Origin: an uncultured Planctomycetaceae bacterium
GTDB lineage: Bacteria; Planctomycetota; Planctomycetia; Planctomycetales; Planctomycetaceae
DNA length: 59,388 nucleotides
Assembly (NCBI GenBank): GCA_937916515.1
Contig: CALFSX010000259.1
Location: 1-59,388, forward strand
Reading direction: 5' to 3'
The notes beneath the pieces are model-generated. The model ran no database searches and was not told the origin of the DNA. It worked only from the letters and a program-made list of their open reading frames with translations. Shown here in pieces: positions 18,122 to 28,445 of the stretch. A program made the position numbers and the translations under genes. How positions within the stretch are numbered: position 1 is the stretch's first letter; each line of letters opens with the position of its first letter.

Positions 18122-20491
18122 TTACTCAATTTGCTCGAACGTCACGTTTCCGATGCGGTATTGTTTCCAGTCCTTGAAATCGAAATGCCACCATTCGTAT
18201 TCGTAGATTGCAAATCCTTCGGATTCCATTGTGCGGCGAAGCAGCTCTCTGTGCCAGCGTTGACGCGACGTACCGCCGGGGTATTGCGGAAATGATCGCG
18301 GTGAAAATTCGTCATAGCCGGCTACCATTTGAATGGGTTCGCCAGAGGCAAGATCATACAATGTTATATCAACGGCGCAGCCTCGGTTGTGACGAGATCC
18401 ATTGGCGGGATTCGCGACGAAGTCTTTCAAGTCGTCAGGCGTGGCGTCCCAAAACATTTTTGTGACGTGCCATGGACGGTACGCATCGTGCACCAGCAGG
18501 CCCAGGCCGCGTTGCTTCAGTCGAGCGTTTGCTCGAACGACCGCTTCCGCTGCTGGACGCTGCATGAAGGCTCGAGCCTGCTTATAGAAGGTTGCACCCG
18601 TGAAGTTGTTGGTCGATGCGTAGCGGATGTCCAGCTTTATCGTCGAATCCAGAGTTGTCAGATCCACCAAATCGGGATCGCGATAGTCGCCTGGTTCCGG
18701 AGGCGGCGACGCAGCGAGTGCACCGGCACGAAGATCGTCGATCGGCTTGAGCGGTTCGATCTTGAATGTCTCACCGTCTTTCGTGCCAACTTCGCGGCGA
18801 TCGAATTTCACTTCGGCCGCAACAACGGACGTTGAGTTGCCGGTTGCATCACGAGTAAAGATTAATCCCTCGCCATGGTACAGACCGTAATCAGGAAATT
18901 CATAAACGTCTTTGCTGACCTGCTTCAGCGGGTAGTAATAGAACCACTCGATTAACGCATACAGCTGGCCGTGGTCTTCCAGTATGTACAACGTGTTGTG
19001 ATCCCAGCCGTATTCGCCGATCAGGCCTTTCCAATGTTGCGGAATGTCTGCTGGTGGCTGGTCCTCAAGTCGAGCGAACTTTGTGTCTCCAACGACAAGC
19101 TTTCCGTCGCCAAGCAACGTCACTTCTGTTCCGAATCCATTTTCATCGTCCGTGATGAACTTGCCATCATTGGCAGCGGAGCCAAGTTTGTAGCGGAAAG
19201 TTCCTCGCTGCATAAAGACATCGCCGTTCAATTCGTTGATGTGTGTGAACCTGTCGCCATCAACGTCGCGGAAGCTTCCGACCAGATCAGCAGCACGCTC
19301 CGGCGGAATCGTGCCGGTCATGCGATAGGTGGGTAACGGCTTGTCGTCCTGAGTCGCAATCATCAGTCGCAGGGCGTAGTCTGCCAGTCGACCGACAACT
19401 CCATTTGTTCCATCCATAGACGCTGCGGCAGCGACTCCCAACTTGCGTTCAGGCAATGCTTCCAATTGGGTTGAGAATCCATAAACCGCGCCGCCGTGTC
19501 CGATCTTCGTATGGCCGTCAAGTTCCTGCACATGAAATCCAATCCCAAATCCCTGCGGCTTGCCGTCAGCATCGTTAATTGGTGTTGTCATCAAACGGTA
19601 GGTTTCCGGCTTCAAGATCTCTCCGGTCGCCGTTTTTCCTTCGTTAAACATGCAGACCATGAACTTTGAAAGGTCCAGCACGCTGGAATACAGATTGCCC
19701 GCCGGCCCGGTCCCCAGCAAAAAGTTGGGAGCTTCGAACTGTCGACCGTCGTAAGTTCTCATCCAGCCGGTGGCGAGTCTGGGTTTGACGGCCTCGGTGA
19801 CCACAAAGCTGCTGCTGTTCATTTCCAATGGATCGAGAATTGTCTGTTGAACTTGTTCCGGGTGAGAAACATTCAACTGCGATTCCAGCGCCGCGCCGAC
19901 CACGGCAACTGCGGCGTTGGAATACTTCGTCTTCGTTTCCGGCCTGTAAACCAACGACGTGCTGTTCAGGCTGGCGACGGTTTCTGCCAGTGTCGGTTTC
20001 GATGGATCAAAATAGTGGCCCACTGGTGATTCGCGAACCAATCCTGATCGGTGCGACATCATCTGACGAAGCGTCAACGGAACGCCGTAGGAATTACCCG
20101 GCTTCAAATTCGGCACGTAAGCCTGAATATCAGCGTCCAGGTCCAGCTTGCCACTTTCAACAAGCTGCATCACAGCAATGTCTGTAAACAGTTTGGACAC
20201 CGATCCCACTCGGTAAACGGTGTCCGCCGTGGCACGCACTTTCTTGCCGGCATCCTGATAACCAAACCCATCAGCCCACACGGTGCGATCGTTGTCGACC
20301 AGAGAAATGGAAAATGCAGGAAGCTGCTTCGATGCGACTTCGTGTCTGATCGCCGCTTGAAGTTTCTCTATCGCCTTCGCATAGCTGATCTCGGCGTCAG
20401 CGGGTTGAGCGTTCGCGCAAGCTCCCGAGAAGAGATTCAGCGTCACCGAAAGCAACACGCAAGCAATAATCGATTTGTGATATTTCAACAT
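18122..20491 (-). CDS. Beta-lactamase-family serine hydrolase fused to VanX-type D-Ala-D-Ala dipeptidase
   Basis: This exported 789-residue protein has two enzyme domains. Residues ~35-390 are a class C-like beta-lactamase/D-aminopeptidase family domain with SVSK (Ser97, Lys100), YSN (Tyr190-Asn192) and HGG (332-334). A linker domain follows. Residues ~605-789 are a peptidase M15D domain: YRPW near 671-674, then SRHNRGCAVD giving zinc ligands His701 and Asp708, and EWWH with catalytic Glu766 and ligand His769. A signal peptide covers residues 1-28. Such enzymes cleave D,D-dipeptides and peptidoglycan-like peptides. The ATG at 20491 overlaps the upstream stop (ATGTTGA) and has AAGGAAG before it, so a longer frame reaching 20782 is an artefact. 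It is the last gene of the three-gene operon. Confidence 0.88.
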   Translation of the reverse strand: MLKYHKSIIACVLLSVTLNLFSGACANAQPADAEISYAKAIEKLQAAIRHEVASKQLPAFSISLVDNDRTVWADGFGYQDAGKKVRATADTVYRVGSVSKLFTDIAVMQLVESGKLDLDADIQAYVPNLKPGNSYGVPLTLRQMMSHRSGLVRESPVGHYFDPSKPTLAETVASLNSTSLVYRPETKTKYSNAAVAVVGAALESQLNVSHPEQVQQTILDPLEMNSSSFVVTEAVKPRLATGWMRTYDGRQFEAPNFLLGTGPAGNLYSSVLDLSKFMVCMFNEGKTATGEILKPETYRLMTTPINDADGKPQGFGIGFHVQELDGHTKIGHGGAVYGFSTQLEALPERKLGVAAAASMDGTNGVVGRLADYALRLMIATQDDKPLPTYRMTGTIPPERAADLVGSFRDVDGDRFTHINELNGDVFMQRGTFRYKLGSAANDGKFITDDENGFGTEVTLLGDGKLVVGDTKFARLEDQPPADIPQHWKGLIGEYGWDHNTLYILEDHGQLYALIEWFYYYPLKQVSKDVYEFPDYGLYHGEGLIFTRDATGNSTSVVAAEVKFDRREVGTKDGETFKIEPLKPIDDLRAGALAASPPPEPGDYRDPDLVDLTTLDSTIKLDIRYASTNNFTGATFYKQARAFMQRPAAEAVVRANARLKQRGLGLLVHDAYRPWHVTKMFWDATPDDLKDFVANPANGSRHNRGCAVDITLYDLASGEPIQMVAGYDEFSPRSFPQYPGGTSRQRWHRELLRRTMESEGFAIYEYEWWHFDFKDWKQYRIGNVTFEQIE

Positions 20492-21549
20492 AGTACTTCC
20501 TTGGCTCGAATAAGGTAGCTGTCGAGCTTTTCCGTTAACAATTCCCCGCCACAGCCAGGCAGTTCCGATAAAGTAACCCGCCCATCGATGACGGTGGCCC
20601 CGCGCGCCGGTTCGTCTTTTAACAGAACCGCTCCGTCCAGGTCGGCGTAGTCCAGCAGTGGAAGCAACTGGGCGGCACCGCTGATGCCGATCGAACTTTC
20701 GACCATGCAACCCACCATTGTTTTCATGCTTAGCTGTCTGGCATTTCGCAGCATCCCGATTGCCGGTGTCAGCCCTCCGCACTTGCAGATTTTAACGTTT
20801 ACGCCATGAAACAGCCCGGCGCAACGACCCACATCAGGTACGGTCTGACAGTCTTCGTCTGCGATGATTGGCAAAGCTGACTCAACGGCAAGACGCGACT
20901 TGTCTTCCCGCGCCGCGGTGATTGGTAACGGCTGTTCGATGAATTCAATGTTTAGATCAGCGAGGATTTTTGAATTCCGAATCGCTTCTTCAACCGTCCA
21001 GCCACAGTTTGCGTCGACTCGAAAGATGGCGTCTGTGTGTTTTCGTAATTCGGTTACGATTTCGATATCATGAACGGTTCCAAGCTTGATCTTGTAGATG
21101 CTCCAATCGGGCAGTTCGTGCAGCTTGGCCACCATATTGCCAATAGTGTCGATGCCGATTGTGTAGCTGCTGTGCGGGACGTTCTTCCATTCAAGATCCC
21201 AGTCCTGCCACGTGGGAATACCTTTCTGTCGACCACGCAGATCGTGCGCCGCAATATCCAGCGCCGACAACGCGAACATATCACCATCGATCAGACTGTG
21301 CATCTTTGGCCAAAGCTCCATCGGTGACTGAGCTACGTAGTCTTCCAGACGGGGCACAATCTTCTTCAGAGATGCTGTCATGGAATCAAAGGTGTGTCCA
21401 TAGAAGGCGTTCTCCGTCACTTCGCCGTATCCGGACAGACCTTCGTGTTCGAGTTTCACCACCATGCTTGGTTGAGTCGTAATGGATCCACGAGCGATCG
21501 TAAACTCGTAAGCCAATGGCAGGTTCAGTTGATAAAGCGTCAGTTTCAT
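20485..21549 (-). CDS. Dipeptide epimerase / N-acetyl-D-glutamate racemase-like enolase superfamily enzyme (DgcA-like)
   Basis: This 354-residue cytoplasmic enzyme belongs to the muconate-lactonising subgroup of the enolase superfamily. The visible catalytic set is KIK (Lys153, Lys155), the metal ligands Asp179 (FRVDANCG), Glu205 (IEQPL) and Asp231 (IADEDC), and the KICK segment at 253-256. A DLD motif at 303-305 is typical of dipeptide epimerases, where it binds the substrate ammonium group. Two roles are possible: epimerising L-Ala-D/L-Glu from murein peptides, or racemising N-acetyl-D-glutamate as DgcA. The neighbouring DUF1611 gene favours the second or a related reaction. Its ATG overlaps the upstream stop by 4 bases (ATGA) and its stop overlaps the next start, so the three genes are translationally coupled. 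Confidence 0.85.
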   Translation of the reverse strand: MKLTLYQLNLPLAYEFTIARGSITTQPSMVVKLEHEGLSGYGEVTENAFYGHTFDSMTASLKKIVPRLEDYVAQSPMELWPKMHSLIDGDMFALSALDIAAHDLRGRQKGIPTWQDWDLEWKNVPHSSYTIGIDTIGNMVAKLHELPDWSIYKIKLGTVHDIEIVTELRKHTDAIFRVDANCGWTVEEAIRNSKILADLNIEFIEQPLPITAAREDKSRLAVESALPIIADEDCQTVPDVGRCAGLFHGVNVKICKCGGLTPAIGMLRNARQLSMKTMVGCMVESSIGISGAAQLLPLLDYADLDGAVLLKDEPARGATVIDGRVTLSELPGCGGELLTEKLDSYLIRAKEVLC

Positions 21550-22628
21550 CGCGCGGCCACCTCAGCACGAAGTGCCAGGCAGGCATCCACCAGCTTGTCA
21601 GCTCCAGTTCTGTAGACGTCACATGCCGGCAAGCCGAATCTGTCTTCGGATCGAAGTAATTCGGTATTGGCTTCTTCCGCTGTCAGGTTGCGAGTGTTAA
21701 CGGCGATGCCGATGATTTTGCACGGATGCCGCAGGTTGGCAACCGACTCATAAGCCAGCATTTGGTCCATAAGTGGTGGTATGTCGACATTGTCGAGCCC
21801 CTTCACCTGATTTCGTCCGGCTTCATAACAAAAGACCAGGCCGTCAGGAGCGCACCCGTGCAGCAGTCCCAGCGTCACCGCCGAAAACGCCGGATGCGAA
21901 ATGCTGCCCTGTCCTTCGATCAGCAGAAATGCATGCTGCTCGTTCTGCTGAACAAGTTCTTCCGCGGCGCCGTTGACAAAGTCAGCGACTACGCAATCGA
22001 TCGGCACGCCTTCTCCCGAGATCATGATGCCCGTCTGCCCGGTCGCCAGAAACTTTGCGTCATGGCCGGCTGCAGTGAGACCTCGTTGAATTTCCAGACT
22101 TGCAACCATCTTACCGACGCTGCAGTCGTGGCCGACAGTATGGATTCGAAGATTGCCCGGCCGAAACACGTAACGTTTCGCCGTAGACTTATGGCGATTG
22201 CGACGCACATCGATCAATAGCGCTCCGGACTTTGCCGCAGCAGATACATACTCGTGGTCGTCTGTCAGGAAGTCATGAAGCCCGGACACGACATCGATCT
22301 TCCGGCGAAGAGCTTCGAGGATCAGCGAACGCCATTCATCGGGAAGCTTTCCTCCCGGTGGGGCAATTCCCACATACAGAGCATCGGCGTCGTCGACAGC
22401 TGAGAGCGATTCGACCACGGGAACATTTCCGCCGGCATTCAGAAGCTGTTGAGATGTTTGACCAGAGGCTTGCTGATCGATGACCGCAATAACGTCATCA
22501 GTGCGATACCGCAAAATGCTGATCGCCGTTTTGGCCACGAACGGCGTTGAATAGCCGTCAGTAAGAATGACGATTCGGCGATGCGACGTCATCGCGGAAC
22601 GTAGAATGTCGTCGTTTACTATGTTCAT
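21546..22628 (-). CDS. DUF1611 P-loop protein (DgcN-like)
   Basis: This 360-residue protein matches DUF1611. The N-terminal half is a Rossmann-like domain (RRIVILTDGYSTPFVAK onward) and the C-terminal half is a P-loop domain whose motif GHDCSVGKM (residues 166-174) is the family's variant Walker A. Members next to enolase-superfamily racemases have been described as DgcN, an N-acetyltransferase acting on D-glutamate; others remain uncharacterised. Here it is the first gene of a coupled operon with the epimerase and the D,D-dipeptidase fusion. It is divergent from a XylR/AraC regulator, with TGCGCA sites in the shared 260-bp promoter region. Whether this copy acetylates D-Glu is inferred from its partners only. 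Confidence 0.8.
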   Translation of the reverse strand: MNIVNDDILRSAMTSHRRIVILTDGYSTPFVAKTAISILRYRTDDVIAVIDQQASGQTSQQLLNAGGNVPVVESLSAVDDADALYVGIAPPGGKLPDEWRSLILEALRRKIDVVSGLHDFLTDDHEYVSAAAKSGALLIDVRRNRHKSTAKRYVFRPGNLRIHTVGHDCSVGKMVASLEIQRGLTAAGHDAKFLATGQTGIMISGEGVPIDCVVADFVNGAAEELVQQNEQHAFLLIEGQGSISHPAFSAVTLGLLHGCAPDGLVFCYEAGRNQVKGLDNVDIPPLMDQMLAYESVANLRHPCKIIGIAVNTRNLTAEEANTELLRSEDRFGLPACDVYRTGADKLVDACLALRAEVAAR

Positions 22629-22706
22629 TTACGTTGGCGCCAATCAGTCGTGGAGCGAGATCCCGATGTCTGATTCTCTTTATACGAAATACCTCAGCAA
22701 CCTGCG

Positions 22707-22741
22707 TGCGCATTTGCGCACAACTATTGCTATTATGCGCA
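22707..22741. promoter_or_regulatory. Candidate operator: three TGCGCA sites, two spaced 21 bp
   Basis: TGCGCA occurs at 22707-22712, 22715-22720 and 22736-22741. The last two are exactly 21 bp apart, two helical turns, as expected for tandem half-sites of an AraC-family dimer. They lie between the divergent DUF1611 and regulator genes. No binding data exist; the assignment rests on position and spacing. Confidence 0.4.
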
Positions 22742-22743
22742 TT

Positions 22744-22862
22744 GTAGCGTTCACGCTCCGCCGTGACCAAAGCAACACATTCAGCGTTGCCATACGTTGC
22801 ACTTTTTCCCGTGTTGAAACTCAACACTGTGGCCATTCATCACGCGGAGCGTGACGGCTACT
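22744..22862. repeat. Paired inverted hairpin repeats in a divergent promoter region
   Basis: The left copy (22744-22768, GTAGCGTTCACGCTCCG core) and right copy (22837-22862, TCATCACGCGGAGCGTGACGG core) are inverted to each other around 68 bp. The pair abuts the TGCGCA sites and ends 29 bp before the regulator's preferred start codon, so it would be in that gene's 5' leader. Confidence 0.65.
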
Positions 22863-22891
22863 AATCCGACGTGATGCAGGACGTCCCAGAT

Positions 22892-24034
22892 ATGAACAAG
22901 CCGCTTCGCGTGGCAGTATTGATTGAAACCGATGACAGCTGGGGCCGCAGCGTGGTTGCGGCGATTGCAGCTTACGCACAGCAACACCATTGGCGTCTGT
23001 TGATTGCTCCACGCGATGACCAACATCGCCTGCGGTTGCCTCGAAAATGGCAGGGCGACGGAGTGCTTGTGTCGTTGCGCGACCGATCGATGGTGAATCA
23101 TGTTCAACGTTCGGGGCTGCCGGCGGTTGACGTTTCTATCATGATGCCGAAGAGTACGTGGTTAGGCCGAGTTGCCACGGACGACGCAGCGCGGGCATCC
23201 ATTGCTTTCGAACATTTTCGATCAAAGCGGCTGGAAAACTTTGCCTGTTATGCCCCGGCAATCGGTCGCTATCCGGTTGCTCGAGCCAACGCTTTCCGCG
23301 ATCTCGTTACAACTGCTGGCTTTGCGTGTGACGTGTTCGCGCAACGGGGTGAAACTCAGGGGTGGGAAGTCGACCACGACCATGTTGTAGAATGGCTGGC
23401 GGAATTGCCTCGACCGTTGGCTGTCTTCGCCGCCGATCCCTATCCCGCTCGTCAGCTGGCAGAAATCTGCGATCTGAACGGAATTGCCGTCCCGGATGAT
23501 GTGGCGATCCTGTCTGGAGACAACGACGACCTGCTGTGTTCTGTATCTTCACCGCACCTTTCGAGCATCCAGTTGGCGTGCAATCGCATTGGAACGGAAG
23601 CAGCGAAATTGCTCACAACGCTGATGAGTGGCGGTGAAGTACCCGATCAGCCCCTGTTAATTCCACCGCTGCATGTGAATGCTCGGCAATCAACGGACGT
23701 TCTGGCAATTGAGGACCCGGAGATTGTCGGGATTCTGCGATACATGGCAGACAACATTCAGCACGCTCTGAGTGTTGCGGATGTGCTGAAGAAGTTCCCG
23801 ATTTCGCGGCGATCATTGGAACAGAAATTTCGCCAATTGTTGAACCGCTCCCCCGCAGAACAGATTCGTCAACTGCGTATGGCACACGTGTGTCACCTGC
23901 TGCGAGAAACAGATCTGACGATTACGGAAATCGCCTTCCGAACAGGATTCAAAAGCAGTTCCAGTCTGACACAACAGGTGACTCGGCATCTTCAAACTTC
24001 ACCGAGTGCTATTCGCGCGGAGTCGCGGCAGTAG
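22892..24034 (+). CDS. XylR-type transcription regulator (periplasmic-binding-like domain + AraC HTH)
   Basis: This 380-residue regulator has an N-terminal LacI/periplasmic-binding-like sensor domain (from LRVAVLIETDDSWGRSVV, about residues 5-270) and a C-terminal AraC double helix-turn-helix (from VADVLKKFPISRRSLEQKF, ending near TEIAFRTGFKSSSSLTQQV). This XylR layout senses a small ligand, often a sugar, in the cytoplasm. I prefer ATG 22892 because the sensor domain begins there, as in the paralogue at 36301, and AGGA lies 10 bases upstream. ATG 22874 and GTG 22871 are in frame. It is divergent from the DUF1611-epimerase-dipeptidase operon and is the likely controller of it. It is convergent with the amidohydrolase gene. 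Confidence 0.86.
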   Translation: MNKPLRVAVLIETDDSWGRSVVAAIAAYAQQHHWRLLIAPRDDQHRLRLPRKWQGDGVLVSLRDRSMVNHVQRSGLPAVDVSIMMPKSTWLGRVATDDAARASIAFEHFRSKRLENFACYAPAIGRYPVARANAFRDLVTTAGFACDVFAQRGETQGWEVDHDHVVEWLAELPRPLAVFAADPYPARQLAEICDLNGIAVPDDVAILSGDNDDLLCSVSSPHLSSIQLACNRIGTEAAKLLTTLMSGGEVPDQPLLIPPLHVNARQSTDVLAIEDPEIVGILRYMADNIQHALSVADVLKKFPISRRSLEQKFRQLLNRSPAEQIRQLRMAHVCHLLRETDLTITEIAFRTGFKSSSSLTQQVTRHLQTSPSAIRAESRQ

Positions 24035-26328: not shown

Positions 26329-27591
26329 TTATTGCACGGATGCCTTCTCTTTGGCTTCCAGCATGGCCTTCACTCTTGCTTCTTCCTTCGCCAGAGCCTC
26401 ACCAGTCACAGACATCGGTTCGAAATACGGTTCGGGCACGAATACTTCGTCTTTGGGGATTTCCCGCCAGCGCAGGTTCCGAAACCAAACGTCCTGCCCG
26501 TGGTCCTGCAGCCAAAGTTGCCCTTTGCGTCCCGTGAGGTCGCCACCGCGTGCAGCGAGCAAATTGATGTACCACTGCCATTGGGGATCGTTGTAATCGA
26601 AGGACAACACGCGTTCGCCGTTGAGCCAATGCTCGATGACGCTGCCCTTGCAGATAATCCGCGCGGTGTTCCAGGTTCCAACGGGCAGCGTGGCGTCTTT
26701 GGACGGTGCCATGCAGAAAAAAAGTGACGCCGCTGCCTGGCGTGCGTTCTCGCCGTAAGGGCTGCCGACGTTGTCGAGCACCTGATATTCGACCTGCCCC
26801 GGACGATAGTAGACTCCACTGTTGCAGCCTGCCGAGACTTTCCAGTCAAACCGCAATTCGAAGTCGTCTGGTACTGCAGTCGCCGTGTAAGTCAGGTTAC
26901 CGCCGCGTGATTTTCGATAGAATGCTCCATCCTCAATAGCCCAATTCCCGGACTGTTCCCAACCGTCGAAGGTTTTGCCGTCGAAGATTGGTGTAAAGGC
27001 CGACTCGGGTTTTGTGAAGCGGGCGAGCGGCCGACTGATCAGGATTCTGAGCTTTGACTTCGGGCCGGAAAGTTTTCCGGACAGAATGTCTTCCTCGGTG
27101 AATCGAGCCAGCAGGATTTCACCGTCGGTGGCACGTTTACGATCGTACGAAATATAGATCGTGCCGTCAGGTGCCTGAAAGCCATCGGGATAGGAAATAC
27201 CTTTGCGTTCATCCAGCACGAGTCCGCCTTGCCACGTCTTGCCGTCGTCATCCGAAAGCCACGCGCTAAGCTGCACTCGCCCCTGATGTGCATCGATGCG
27301 GTCACCGTGCTTCACCAACAGCAGGCGTCCGGATAGCAATCGGCGAACATGAAAACGCGCGTTCGGCTGGCGAATGCCTTCTGGTTCGGTCGCCATCGAC
27401 CAGGTGCGTCCGCCATCGGTCGATATCGATTCCATGATCCCTTTCGCAGTTCGAGCCAGCATCCACAGTGAACTGTCCTTCCGCTCGACGATCATGTGTT
27501 CGTGCCAGTCAGGATTCGGAAACGTGGCCATGCCGCGCCGCTCCCAGGTCGTTCCTTCATCACGGGACACAAACACGTTCGCGCCTCGCAT
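26329..27591 (-). CDS. C-terminal part of a frameshifted sialidase-DUF1080 protein
   Basis: This is the second fragment of one gene. Its first ~190 residues carry three Asp-box (BNR) motifs, [16 protein letters not shown] and SDDDGKTW, of a sialidase-type propeller. From [16 protein letters not shown] onward it is a DUF1080/3-keto-disaccharide hydrolase domain, followed by a short charged helix ([17 protein letters not shown]). The coding sense continues upstream of this Met without a stop to the G9 tract at 27631-27639, where the frame joins the other fragment. The intact product would be about 680 residues, secreted, and act on glycans or 3-keto sugars. As assembled, this fragment has no credible start of its own. 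Confidence 0.72.
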
Positions 27592-28369
27592 CGGATCGAG
27601 TTCGGCGAAGCAACCCTTGAACGGCCCGCACCCCCCCCCGCTGATCCAGAGAGATCGGCAGCATCCACTCGACCGTTGACAGAACCGTCGGCTTGTTCAA
27701 CGTGACTCCATGCCAGATACGGCGAGTAGCAGACCACGTTGGCACGTCGGCATCAGGGTTCTCGCAAAGTGTCGCCCACACTCCGGCGCGACCGTCGAAC
27801 ATGTCCATTGATTGTTCGAAGATCAGCCACAGTCTTCCCAGCGGATCCGTCCACAGATTGCCGACCAGAATGCTGCGTTCGCGGGGCAGGTCTTTTGAAT
27901 GCGAATCGACCACCAACCGCGGCTTCGACCATGTTTGACCGTCGTCGTCCGACGTGGCCAGCACAAAGTAGGCTGCGGGACTGTCGCCGCCCGCGACCCA
28001 GCAGGCCCACAATCGACCACCGGGTGTCCGTTCGATCCCGATCGTCATACCGTAGTTCAACTGTTCATAGTCGTAGTCCGGCAGCGGCGACGTGTTCAAC
28101 ACCGGCGGCACCAGAGCGTAGTCCGCCACTTTCTCCATTTCCGTGATTCTGGCCGAGGATTCCTTAGCGGCTTCCTGCTTTCGCGCCGGTGCTTGCAACG
28201 GCTTCGCCTGAAGTTCCTCACCCACTGTTGTCACTTCATCGCTGGCGAAGGTCGCGGCCAATGGCTGGGGCATGAGCTTCAGTTCATCACAGCGTGCCAC
28301 GTTGAAGGAGACCAGCGCCGTCGCCAGCGCTGCGGCCAGAAAGTGTTGTTTGAGCAGTTGCCACATCAT
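27560..28369 (-). CDS. N-terminal part of a frameshifted sialidase-DUF1080 protein
   Basis: This fragment has a signal peptide ([23 protein letters not shown]), a low-complexity linker, and the first blades of a sialidase-type propeller, including [18 protein letters not shown] and the Asp-box SDDDGQTW. It runs off into unrelated Arg-rich sequence (about the last 20 residues) after a run of nine G on the coding strand at 27631-27639. With eight G the frame passes straight into the downstream fragment. I chose ATG 28369 because GGAAGAG lies nine bases upstream; ATG 28387 is the alternative. It lies 76 bp after the sulfatase stop and is probably cotranscribed with it. Confidence 0.7.
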
Positions 28370-28445
28370 CTTTGAGTTCTCTTCCATTTCAATAATCGTG
28401 CAGCTGCAGAACATCGCTGGTGGTTTAAGCCGCTCTGTGTGAAGG

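What the first reader, a model, noticed from the sequence alone, without database searches (positions are those of the whole stretch)
18122..24034. Candidate D-amino-acid / peptidoglycan-peptide scavenging operon with its own divergent regulator
Three minus-strand genes have overlapping stop and start codons (ATGA at 21546-21549 and ATGTTGA at 20485-20491). They encode a DUF1611 protein, an enolase-superfamily enzyme with the dipeptide-epimerase DLD motif, and a serine hydrolase fused to a VanX-type D,D-dipeptidase. DUF1611 next to such an epimerase matches the DgcN/DgcA pair described for D-glutamate breakdown by N-acetylation and racemisation. A D,D-dipeptidase exported alongside would release D-amino acids from cell-wall debris. 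A XylR/AraC regulator is divergent. Linking exported D,D-dipeptide cleavage to DgcN/DgcA in one operon looks new to me; I know no described system with this content. The inference is from families and gene order.
Basis: partly seen in the sequence, partly recalled or inferred. Interest (0 to 1): 0.75.

Follow-up and report, generated by a model that had tools for sequence, protein, structure and literature searches.

The report
Planctomycete D-amino-acid wall-peptide scavenging operon
Three overlapping genes and a neighbouring switch protein in a planctomycete look like one small, self-controlled operon for using D-amino acids released from bacterial cell-wall debris; the parts belong to known families, while the combination and a conserved DNA switch site in front of it look new.

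Summary
Observation confirmed. Three minus-strand genes overlap by ATGA and ATGTTGA: DUF1611 (DgcN-like), an enolase-superfamily epimerase, and an exported serine hydrolase fused to a D,D-dipeptidase (SH-M15). A XylR/AraC regulator diverges.

The DUF1611-epimerase pair recurs: 62 of 84 evaluable loci. SH-M15 follows it in 5 of 5 evaluable congeners (one seen only in part) and a few other genera, yet in only 3 of 15 phylum-sample genomes that have SH-M15. No relative examined shows regulator, pair and SH-M15 together.

New here: a triple half-site, TGCGCA-N15-TGCGCnnnTGCGCA, once in each of 4 of 58 genomes, always before DUF1611 and beside this regulator.

The 'DLD motif' does not tell substrate: Pseudoalteromonas DgcA and E. 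coli YcjG share it, and YcjG passes NCBI's DgcA model. N-acetyl-Glu racemase or L-Ala-D/L-Glu epimerase stays open; ArgJ-linked DUF1611 loci favour the former.

Exported wall peptidase plus dipeptide epimerase is a known kind (B. cereus ykfBC, PMC2954226). Verdict: new variant of a known kind.

The parts
21546..22628 (-). DUF1611 protein, DgcN-like (360 aa), first gene of the operon
   Evidence: PF17396+PF07755; best NCBIfam DgcN NF041892, 281.5 bits, cut-off 480; 41-43% identity over 272-332 residues to annotated DgcN of Ruegeria and Pseudoalteromonas CF6-2, motif VGHDCSVGKM kept
20485..21549 (-). Enolase-superfamily epimerase/racemase, DgcA/YcjG-like (354 aa), overlaps DUF1611 by ATGA
   Evidence: PF02746+PF13378; NCBIfam DgcA 205.6 bits (cut-off 400), L-Ala-D/L-Glu epimerase 154.6 (cut-off 343); catalytic motifs and DLD kept
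18122..20491 (-). Exported serine hydrolase (S12/beta-lactamase fold) fused to M15 D,D-dipeptidase (789 aa), overlaps epimerase by ATGTTGA
   Evidence: PF00144 and PF01427; PRK10178 D-Ala-D-Ala dipeptidase 148 bits, cut-off 176; active-site motifs complete; N-terminus reads as a Sec signal peptide (by eye, no predictor run)
22871..24034 (+). Divergent XylR/AraC-type regulator (start GTG 22871 or ATG 22892)
   Evidence: PF13377, PF12833, PF22177; a homologue within 3 kb of DUF1611 in 8 of 91 other loci
22707..22741 (-). Predicted operator: TGCGCA half-sites at 22707, 22715 and 22736 (spacings 8 and 21 bp)
   Evidence: Conserved among divergent loci; core pattern at 5 of 96 loci, each time before DUF1611; full triple once in each of 4 of 58 genomes, 0 for the backwards control

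Best explanation
A locally regulated catabolic operon for D-amino acids from cell-wall peptides. The exported SH-M15 protein trims D-amino-acid peptides outside the inner membrane: the S12 domain is a D-peptide hydrolase and the M15 domain splits D-Ala-D-Ala or a similar D,D-dipeptide (inferred from family and motifs). D-Glu, or a product that contains it, enters by a transporter not in the operon (inferred). In the cytoplasm the DgcN-like protein N-acetylates D-Glu, and the epimerase racemises N-acetyl-D-Glu to N-acetyl-L-Glu, which joins the arginine/glutamate pool (inferred; the genome has ArgJ). The XylR/AraC regulator binds TGCGCA half-sites between the divergent genes and switches on the operon when a ligand is present (site shown by conservation; binding and ligand inferred). 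This genome has no MurI match, nor has any of the 57 other genomes sampled, so scavenged D-Glu lacks the simple racemase route to L-Glu, which gives such an operon a purpose.
For: Overlapping genes. DUF1611 and epimerase adjacent on one strand in 62 of 84 evaluable loci, among them Planctomycetota, Verrucomicrobiota and Chloroflexota (names), and adjacent as annotated DgcN/DgcA in Pseudoalteromonas CF6-2 and Ruegeria. SH-M15 downstream in 5 of 5 evaluable congeners, in G007 only its hydrolase part being held. D-amino-acid enzymes as annotated neighbours elsewhere: D-amino-acid transaminase in Ruegeria, D-aminoacylase and serine hydrolase in Haladaptatus; SH-Amidohydro_3 genes in L002, L012, L097 and, split, L104. 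ArgJ-cluster gene near DUF1611 in 9 loci, one with the epimerase too. Conserved site before DUF1611. ArgJ in the own genome. MurI in 0 of 58 genomes, own included, control ringing in 10 of 14; MurD present. DgcN-DgcA pathway stated in PMC10845958 (one passage).
Against: Equivalog cut-offs are not met. No transporter gene in the operon. No relative examined has regulator, pair and SH-M15 at one locus: the 8 regulator-linked loci lack SH-M15 and the SH-M15-linked loci lack the regulator (in the nearest relative L002 the contig begins about 170 nt before DUF1611, so it cannot tell). SH-M15 lies apart from DUF1611 in 5 of the 8 sampled genomes that have both, and occurs without DUF1611 in 7 of 15. 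22 of 84 evaluable DUF1611 loci have no adjacent same-strand epimerase, L104 with the best-matching regulator among them. L078 has the core site without a detected regulator. A D-amino-acid transaminase homologue (219 bits, cut-off 277) offers another D-Glu route. I recall XylR-type sensors as sugar-binding.
Confidence: 0.47

Rival explanations
1. Classical murein-dipeptide route: the epimerase converts imported L-Ala-D-Glu to L-Ala-L-Glu for cleavage by a dipeptidase, as YkfB/YcjG do, and DUF1611 does something else in the same pathway. Exported SH-M15 takes the place of the exported NlpC/P60 peptidase of B. cereus.
For: E. coli YcjG is as near to the window enzyme as DgcA (33% against 30-32%); DLD and the N-terminal Arg are shared with YcjG; the best solved relative is 3iji, which I recall as a Bacteroides L-Ala-D/L-Glu epimerase; the suggestion for B. 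cereus that murein peptides are broken down outside and L-Ala-D-Glu is imported (PMC2954226, passages).
Against: DUF1611 is the steadiest partner (62 of 84), and the only function I know for it is D-Glu N-acetylation; ArgJ-cluster context of DUF1611; the DgcA model scores higher than the epimerase model, though that model does not discriminate.
Confidence: 0.28
2. SH-M15 is a lineage-specific passenger. The core is a regulator with a DUF1611-epimerase pair for some N-acyl or dipeptide substrate, and different exported hydrolases join it now and then.
For: The gene after the pair varies: Asparaginase_2, SH-Amidohydro_3, serine dehydratase, a CehA/McbA-like metallohydrolase or an opposite-strand gene; SH-M15 unlinked or without DUF1611 in 12 of 15 sampled genomes; regulator and SH-M15 at one locus only in the window.
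Against: Overlapping start in the window, linkage in 5 of 5 evaluable congeners and recurrence in Thalassoglobus, Planctomicrobium and Roseiconus.
Confidence: 0.18
3. Run in reverse, the pair supplies D-Glu for wall synthesis in a MurI-less bacterium (N-acetyl-L-Glu to N-acetyl-D-Glu to D-Glu).
For: No MurI match in 58 genomes, MurD present in the own genome.
Against: 0 of 58 sampled genomes have MurI but only 17 of 58 have DUF1611, so most manage without it; a D-amino-acid transaminase homologue is present; DapF is proposed as the D-Glu source in this superphylum (PMC5885031, passages).
Confidence: 0.07

Closest known systems
DgcN/DgcA/DgcR D-glutamate catabolic cluster (Pseudoalteromonas sp. 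CF6-2; Yu et al. 2023 ISME J is not held and was seen only as a reference entry)
   Same: DUF1611 and epimerase genes in the same order and overlapping, with a regulator gene next to them
   Different: LysR-type regulator on the same strand instead of a divergent XylR/AraC; no SH-M15 in the 8.8 kb seen; window proteins 30-43% identical and below the equivalog cut-offs
ykfBC of Bacillus cereus; association also named for Bacteroides thetaiotaomicron and others (PMC2954226, passages)
   Same: Wall peptidase (exported in B. cereus) next to a cytoplasmic dipeptide epimerase
   Different: NlpC/P60 peptidase, not a serine hydrolase-D,D-dipeptidase; no DUF1611 mentioned in the passages seen
ddpXABCDF of E. 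coli K-12
   Same: D-Ala-D-Ala dipeptidase of the same family (35% identity)
   Different: Single domain, followed by genes of a putative D,D-dipeptide ABC transporter; no epimerase or DUF1611 in the 8.5 kb seen
ycjG and mpaA of E. coli K-12
   Same: Epimerase gene beside a murein peptide amidase gene
   Different: mpaA on the opposite strand; no DUF1611 or D,D-dipeptidase in the 6 kb seen

Membership tests
DgcN (N-acetyltransferase, NCBIfam NF041892) | Score over the curated equivalog cut-off (480 bits) | tested here: not met
   281.5 bits; CF6-2 DgcN reaches 493.4
DgcN (N-acetyltransferase, NCBIfam NF041892) | DUF1611 architecture PF17396+PF07755 and the conserved motif GxDCSVGKM | tested here: met
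DgcN (N-acetyltransferase, NCBIfam NF041892) | N-acetylation of D-Glu | not testable with these tools
   Needs an enzyme assay
DgcA (N-acetyl-D-Glu racemase, NF042940) | Score over the curated equivalog cut-off (400 bits) | tested here: not met
   205.6 bits; E. coli YcjG passes the model at 424 bits and CF6-2 DgcA at 412, so it does not discriminate
L-Ala-D/L-Glu epimerase (PRK15129) | Score over the curated equivalog cut-off (343 bits) | tested here: not met
   154.6 bits
L-Ala-D/L-Glu epimerase (PRK15129) | Catalytic lysines, metal-ligand stretches, DxD motif | tested here: met
   Alignment with YcjG; shared with DgcA, so not discriminating
D-Ala-D-Ala dipeptidase (M15, PF01427, DdpX/VanX type) | Active-site stretches SxHxxGxAxD, ExxWH and the Arg of DAYRP (roles recalled) | tested here: met
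   Alignment with DdpX; PF01427 118 bits, cut-off 27
D-Ala-D-Ala dipeptidase (M15, PF01427, DdpX/VanX type) | Score over the equivalog cut-off of PRK10178 (176 bits) | tested here: not met
   148 bits
Serine hydrolase, S12/beta-lactamase fold (PF00144) | SxxK, YxN, HxG motifs | tested here: met
   SVSK, YSN, GHGG in the window protein
XylR-type AraC regulator | LacI-like sensor plus AraC helix-turn-helix | tested here: met
   PF13377 and PF12833; PF22177 27 bits at cut-off 27

The most novel reading that the evidence does not exclude
A dedicated, self-regulated D-amino-acid salvage operon of MurI-less planctomycetes: a bifunctional exported D-peptide hydrolase/D,D-dipeptidase feeds a cytoplasmic N-acetylation-racemisation route into N-acetylglutamate and arginine metabolism, under a XylR-type regulator that has this single target and senses a wall-derived ligand instead of a sugar.
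Probability: 0.28. Interest if true: 0.62.

Novelty: new variant of a known kind. Interest (0 to 1): 0.45.

Why it matters
D-amino-acid reservoirs are called important components of deep-sea recalcitrant organic matter in PMC12363236 (abstract start), and that paper names Planctomycetia among classes that may be important for D-amino-acid recycling (passage). An operon that runs from an outer hydrolase to an inner racemase, with a defined switch site, would make that testable gene by gene. It also offers a way to find what a XylR-type regulator without an evident sugar operon senses, and bears on how bacteria without glutamate racemase return D-Glu to metabolism.

Tried and rejected
Using the DLD motif to decide the substrate: rejected. 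CF6-2 DgcA, Ruegeria DgcA and YcjG have it, and a loose pattern for it is found near the C-terminus of 70 of 71 rows. Using the NCBIfam DgcA model: rejected, YcjG passes it. A tree of 71 epimerases: the planctomycete-verrucomicrobial clade (60 rows) stands apart from Ruegeria DgcA, CF6-2 DgcA and YcjG, which group together; the tool warns of long branches there, so it does not settle the substrate. SH-M15 as a universal part: rejected, 7 full and 1 partial of 45 evaluable pair loci (evaluable means 7 kb downstream held or a match found, which leans towards finding). The 21-bp pair of half-sites alone: weak, since the backwards control also gives one place in the own genome; the triple is what is specific. 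D-Glu supply for wall synthesis as the main role: rejected because DUF1611 is in 17 of 58 genomes while MurI is in 0 of 58.

Literature: (DUF1611 with D-glutamate) 0 papers; (DgcN with DgcA) 5, of which by title and abstract start four concern c-di-GMP enzymes; (DUF1611) 2, both on Dickeya or its phages by title; 0; 1. Searches listed 10 of 163 and 12 of 227 papers; one search listed 7 of 7. One search matched 15,028 papers through a too-short term, 20 listed, and tells nothing. So 'not found described' means not found in these searches of openly licensed papers.

Full report
What is there. On the minus strand DUF1611 (21546-22628), an enolase-superfamily enzyme (20485-21549) and a serine hydrolase-M15 fusion (18122-20491) overlap by ATGA and ATGTTGA. 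A XylR/AraC-type regulator (22871 or 22892 to 24034) diverges. The window lies in an 8.33-Mb genome, 99.3% complete. Its congeners G001 and G007 hold contigs of exactly the lengths of two Fuerstiella contigs (61925 and 56398 bp), so the genus is probably Fuerstiella (inference). DUF1611 and M15 (PF01427) each match once in this genome.

The proteins. NCBIfam's best model for DUF1611 is DgcN (281.5 bits, cut-off 480) and for the enolase-type enzyme DgcA (205.6, cut-off 400), then L-Ala-D/L-Glu epimerase (154.6, cut-off 343). Neither reaches equivalog level. The nearest solved DUF1611 chain, 7xrj, is by eye nearly identical to the annotated Ruegeria DgcN. Aligned with CF6-2 DgcA, Ruegeria DgcA and E. 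coli YcjG, the window enzyme keeps the catalytic motifs, the N-terminal Arg and the DLD motif, and so do these three. Identities are 30-33% to each, and YcjG itself scores 424 on the DgcA model. Sequence therefore cannot say whether the enzyme racemises N-acetyl-Glu or epimerises L-Ala-Glu. The third protein has a Sec-like N-terminus (by eye), intact S12 motifs and an M15 part 35% identical to E. coli DdpX. In a pattern search over 18 such proteins, window included, SxHxxGxAxD was found in 18. The Glu-Trp-Trp-His pattern was missed in 3, GHGG (or GHTG/GHSG) in 5 and SxxK in 1. At least L146 has the Trp-Trp-His by alignment and L010 is cut by its contig end, so some misses are pattern strictness.

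Conservation. One search, a scan seeded by peptides of the window's own DUF1611 protein, returned 77 loci. With 18 regions from relatives and 4 duplicates removed, 91 were examined. Of 84 with at least 1.1 kb downstream, 62 have an adjacent same-strand epimerase and 22 do not. SH-M15 follows the pair in 7 full cases and 1 partial of 45 evaluable. In the genus, 6 of 7 other genomes have DUF1611. In G001 the contig ends after the epimerase, and in the remaining 5 SH-M15 follows, in G007 only the hydrolase part being held. G002, G003, G004 and G007 have a further serine-hydrolase domain in between, and G002 and G007 an SH-Amidohydro_3 gene. L002 and L008 have an Asparaginase_2-type gene in between (family tested on L008; L002 by similarity). 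In a sample of 294 genomes of the phylum SH-M15 matches in 15, in one of them (G248) without the M15 part in the same match. Of the 15, 3 (window genome, G191, G246) have it beside DUF1611, 5 have both apart or on different contigs, and 7 lack DUF1611. DUF1611 matches in 93 of the 294, over its cut-off in 79. The fusion thus has a life of its own, and its place in this operon is a lineage trait.

A result against a fixed four-gene unit. A homologue of the regulator lies within 3 kb of DUF1611 in 8 of 91 loci: L013, L016, L048, L104, L108, L109, L110, L111. None of these has SH-M15 downstream, and no SH-M15-linked locus has the regulator. In the congener G004 the regulator stands at one DUF1611 copy (L104: 86% DUF1611, 82% regulator, no epimerase, an SH-amidohydrolase gene instead) and SH-M15 at another (L105). 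The nearest relative L002 is cut just before DUF1611 and cannot tell. So the full arrangement rests on the window.

N-acetylglutamate context. Nine loci carry a gene of one similarity cluster shortly before DUF1611. One representative was tested as ArgJ and its neighbour as a semialdehyde dehydrogenase of the ArgC kind. Seven of the nine have no adjacent epimerase, L057 ends too soon to tell, and in L060 the ArgJ-cluster gene, DUF1611 and the epimerase stand on one strand within about 5 kb. ArgJ handles N-acetylglutamate (established), so this second setting fits DUF1611 as an enzyme of N-acetylglutamate.

The switch. Aligned intergenic regions of five loci share TGCGCA repeats. In 96 sequences (1.45 Mb, 4 duplicates and the window included) the core pattern, read on both strands, has 7 matches at 5 loci (two places are read twice), all 93-107 nt before the estimated DUF1611 start. 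Four of the five have the regulator; the fifth, L078 from a Gemmatimonadetes genome, has none detected. The full triple TGCGCA-N15-TGCGCnnnTGCGCA occurs once in each of 4 of 58 genomes (G000, G004, G039, G056), before DUF1611 and beside the regulator each time; the pattern read backwards gives 0 in all 58. The other regulator-linked loci are less clean: L108 a variant, L109 a mirrored triple before the regulator itself, L048 a 21-bp pair, L013 and L016 one half-site each. A relaxed pattern has 0 matches in 227 kb around SH-M15 genes of other genomes. The congener loci with SH-M15 and no regulator lack the core pattern. A 21-bp spacing fits AraC-type half-sites (recalled). I infer a local regulator, probably with this one target.

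Physiology. MurI (TIGR00067) matches in 0 of 58 genomes, own included, while the control rings in 10 of 14. MurD is present. A D-amino-acid transaminase homologue scores 219 bits, below its cut-off of 277. Lack of MurI in most of this superphylum is known, and DapF was proposed as the D-Glu source (PMC5885031, passages). A catabolic route that does not need MurI makes sense here; a general D-Glu supply role does not, since DUF1611 is in 17 of 58.

Comparison. The DgcN-DgcA pathway is mentioned in PMC10845958 (one passage) and was introduced by Yu et al. 2023, which is not held. An exported wall peptidase beside a cytoplasmic epimerase is described for B. cereus (PMC2954226, passages), and the epimerase function of YcjG/YkfB in PMC5808125 (passages). 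PMC4432595 was looked at in passages and not used. What I did not find described, within the searches named under Tried and rejected, is DUF1611, epimerase and an exported D,D-dipeptidase fusion in one operon, or the operator. The verdict is a new variant of a known kind, with the substrate question open.

Noticed in passing
L104:8243-12258: In congener G004 a DUF1611 copy (86% to the window) with the divergent regulator (82%) is followed by a serine hydrolase-amidohydrolase gene split by a transposase gene of the DDE_Tnp_1 kind.
   Followed up: partly
L025, L029, L032, L034, L043, L055, L057, L059, L060: DUF1611 copies near an ArgJ-cluster gene, 7 of 8 evaluable without an adjacent epimerase; L060 has both.
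   Followed up: partly
L015, L017, L024: Schlesneria loci join DUF1611 and epimerase with a peptidase S51, a PGA_cap protein and an Asparaginase_2-cluster protein (families tested on L017 and L008 only), which hints at iso-peptide or poly-amino-acid use.
   Followed up: partly
own genome and 57 relatives: No glutamate racemase (TIGR00067) match in any of the 58 genomes, although MurD is present in the own genome.
   Followed up: partly
window 26329-28414: A BNR/sialidase-like protein appears split over two overlapping frames: profile positions 1-133 in one ORF and 138-277 in the next.
   Followed up: no
L119:109-6885: Haladaptatus plasmid with annotated D-aminoacylase, two dipeptide epimerases, DUF1611 and a serine hydrolase together: a related combination in archaea.
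   Followed up: partly
L078, about 102 nt before DUF1611: The core switch pattern occurs before DUF1611 in a Gemmatimonadetes genome without a detected regulator homologue.
   Followed up: no
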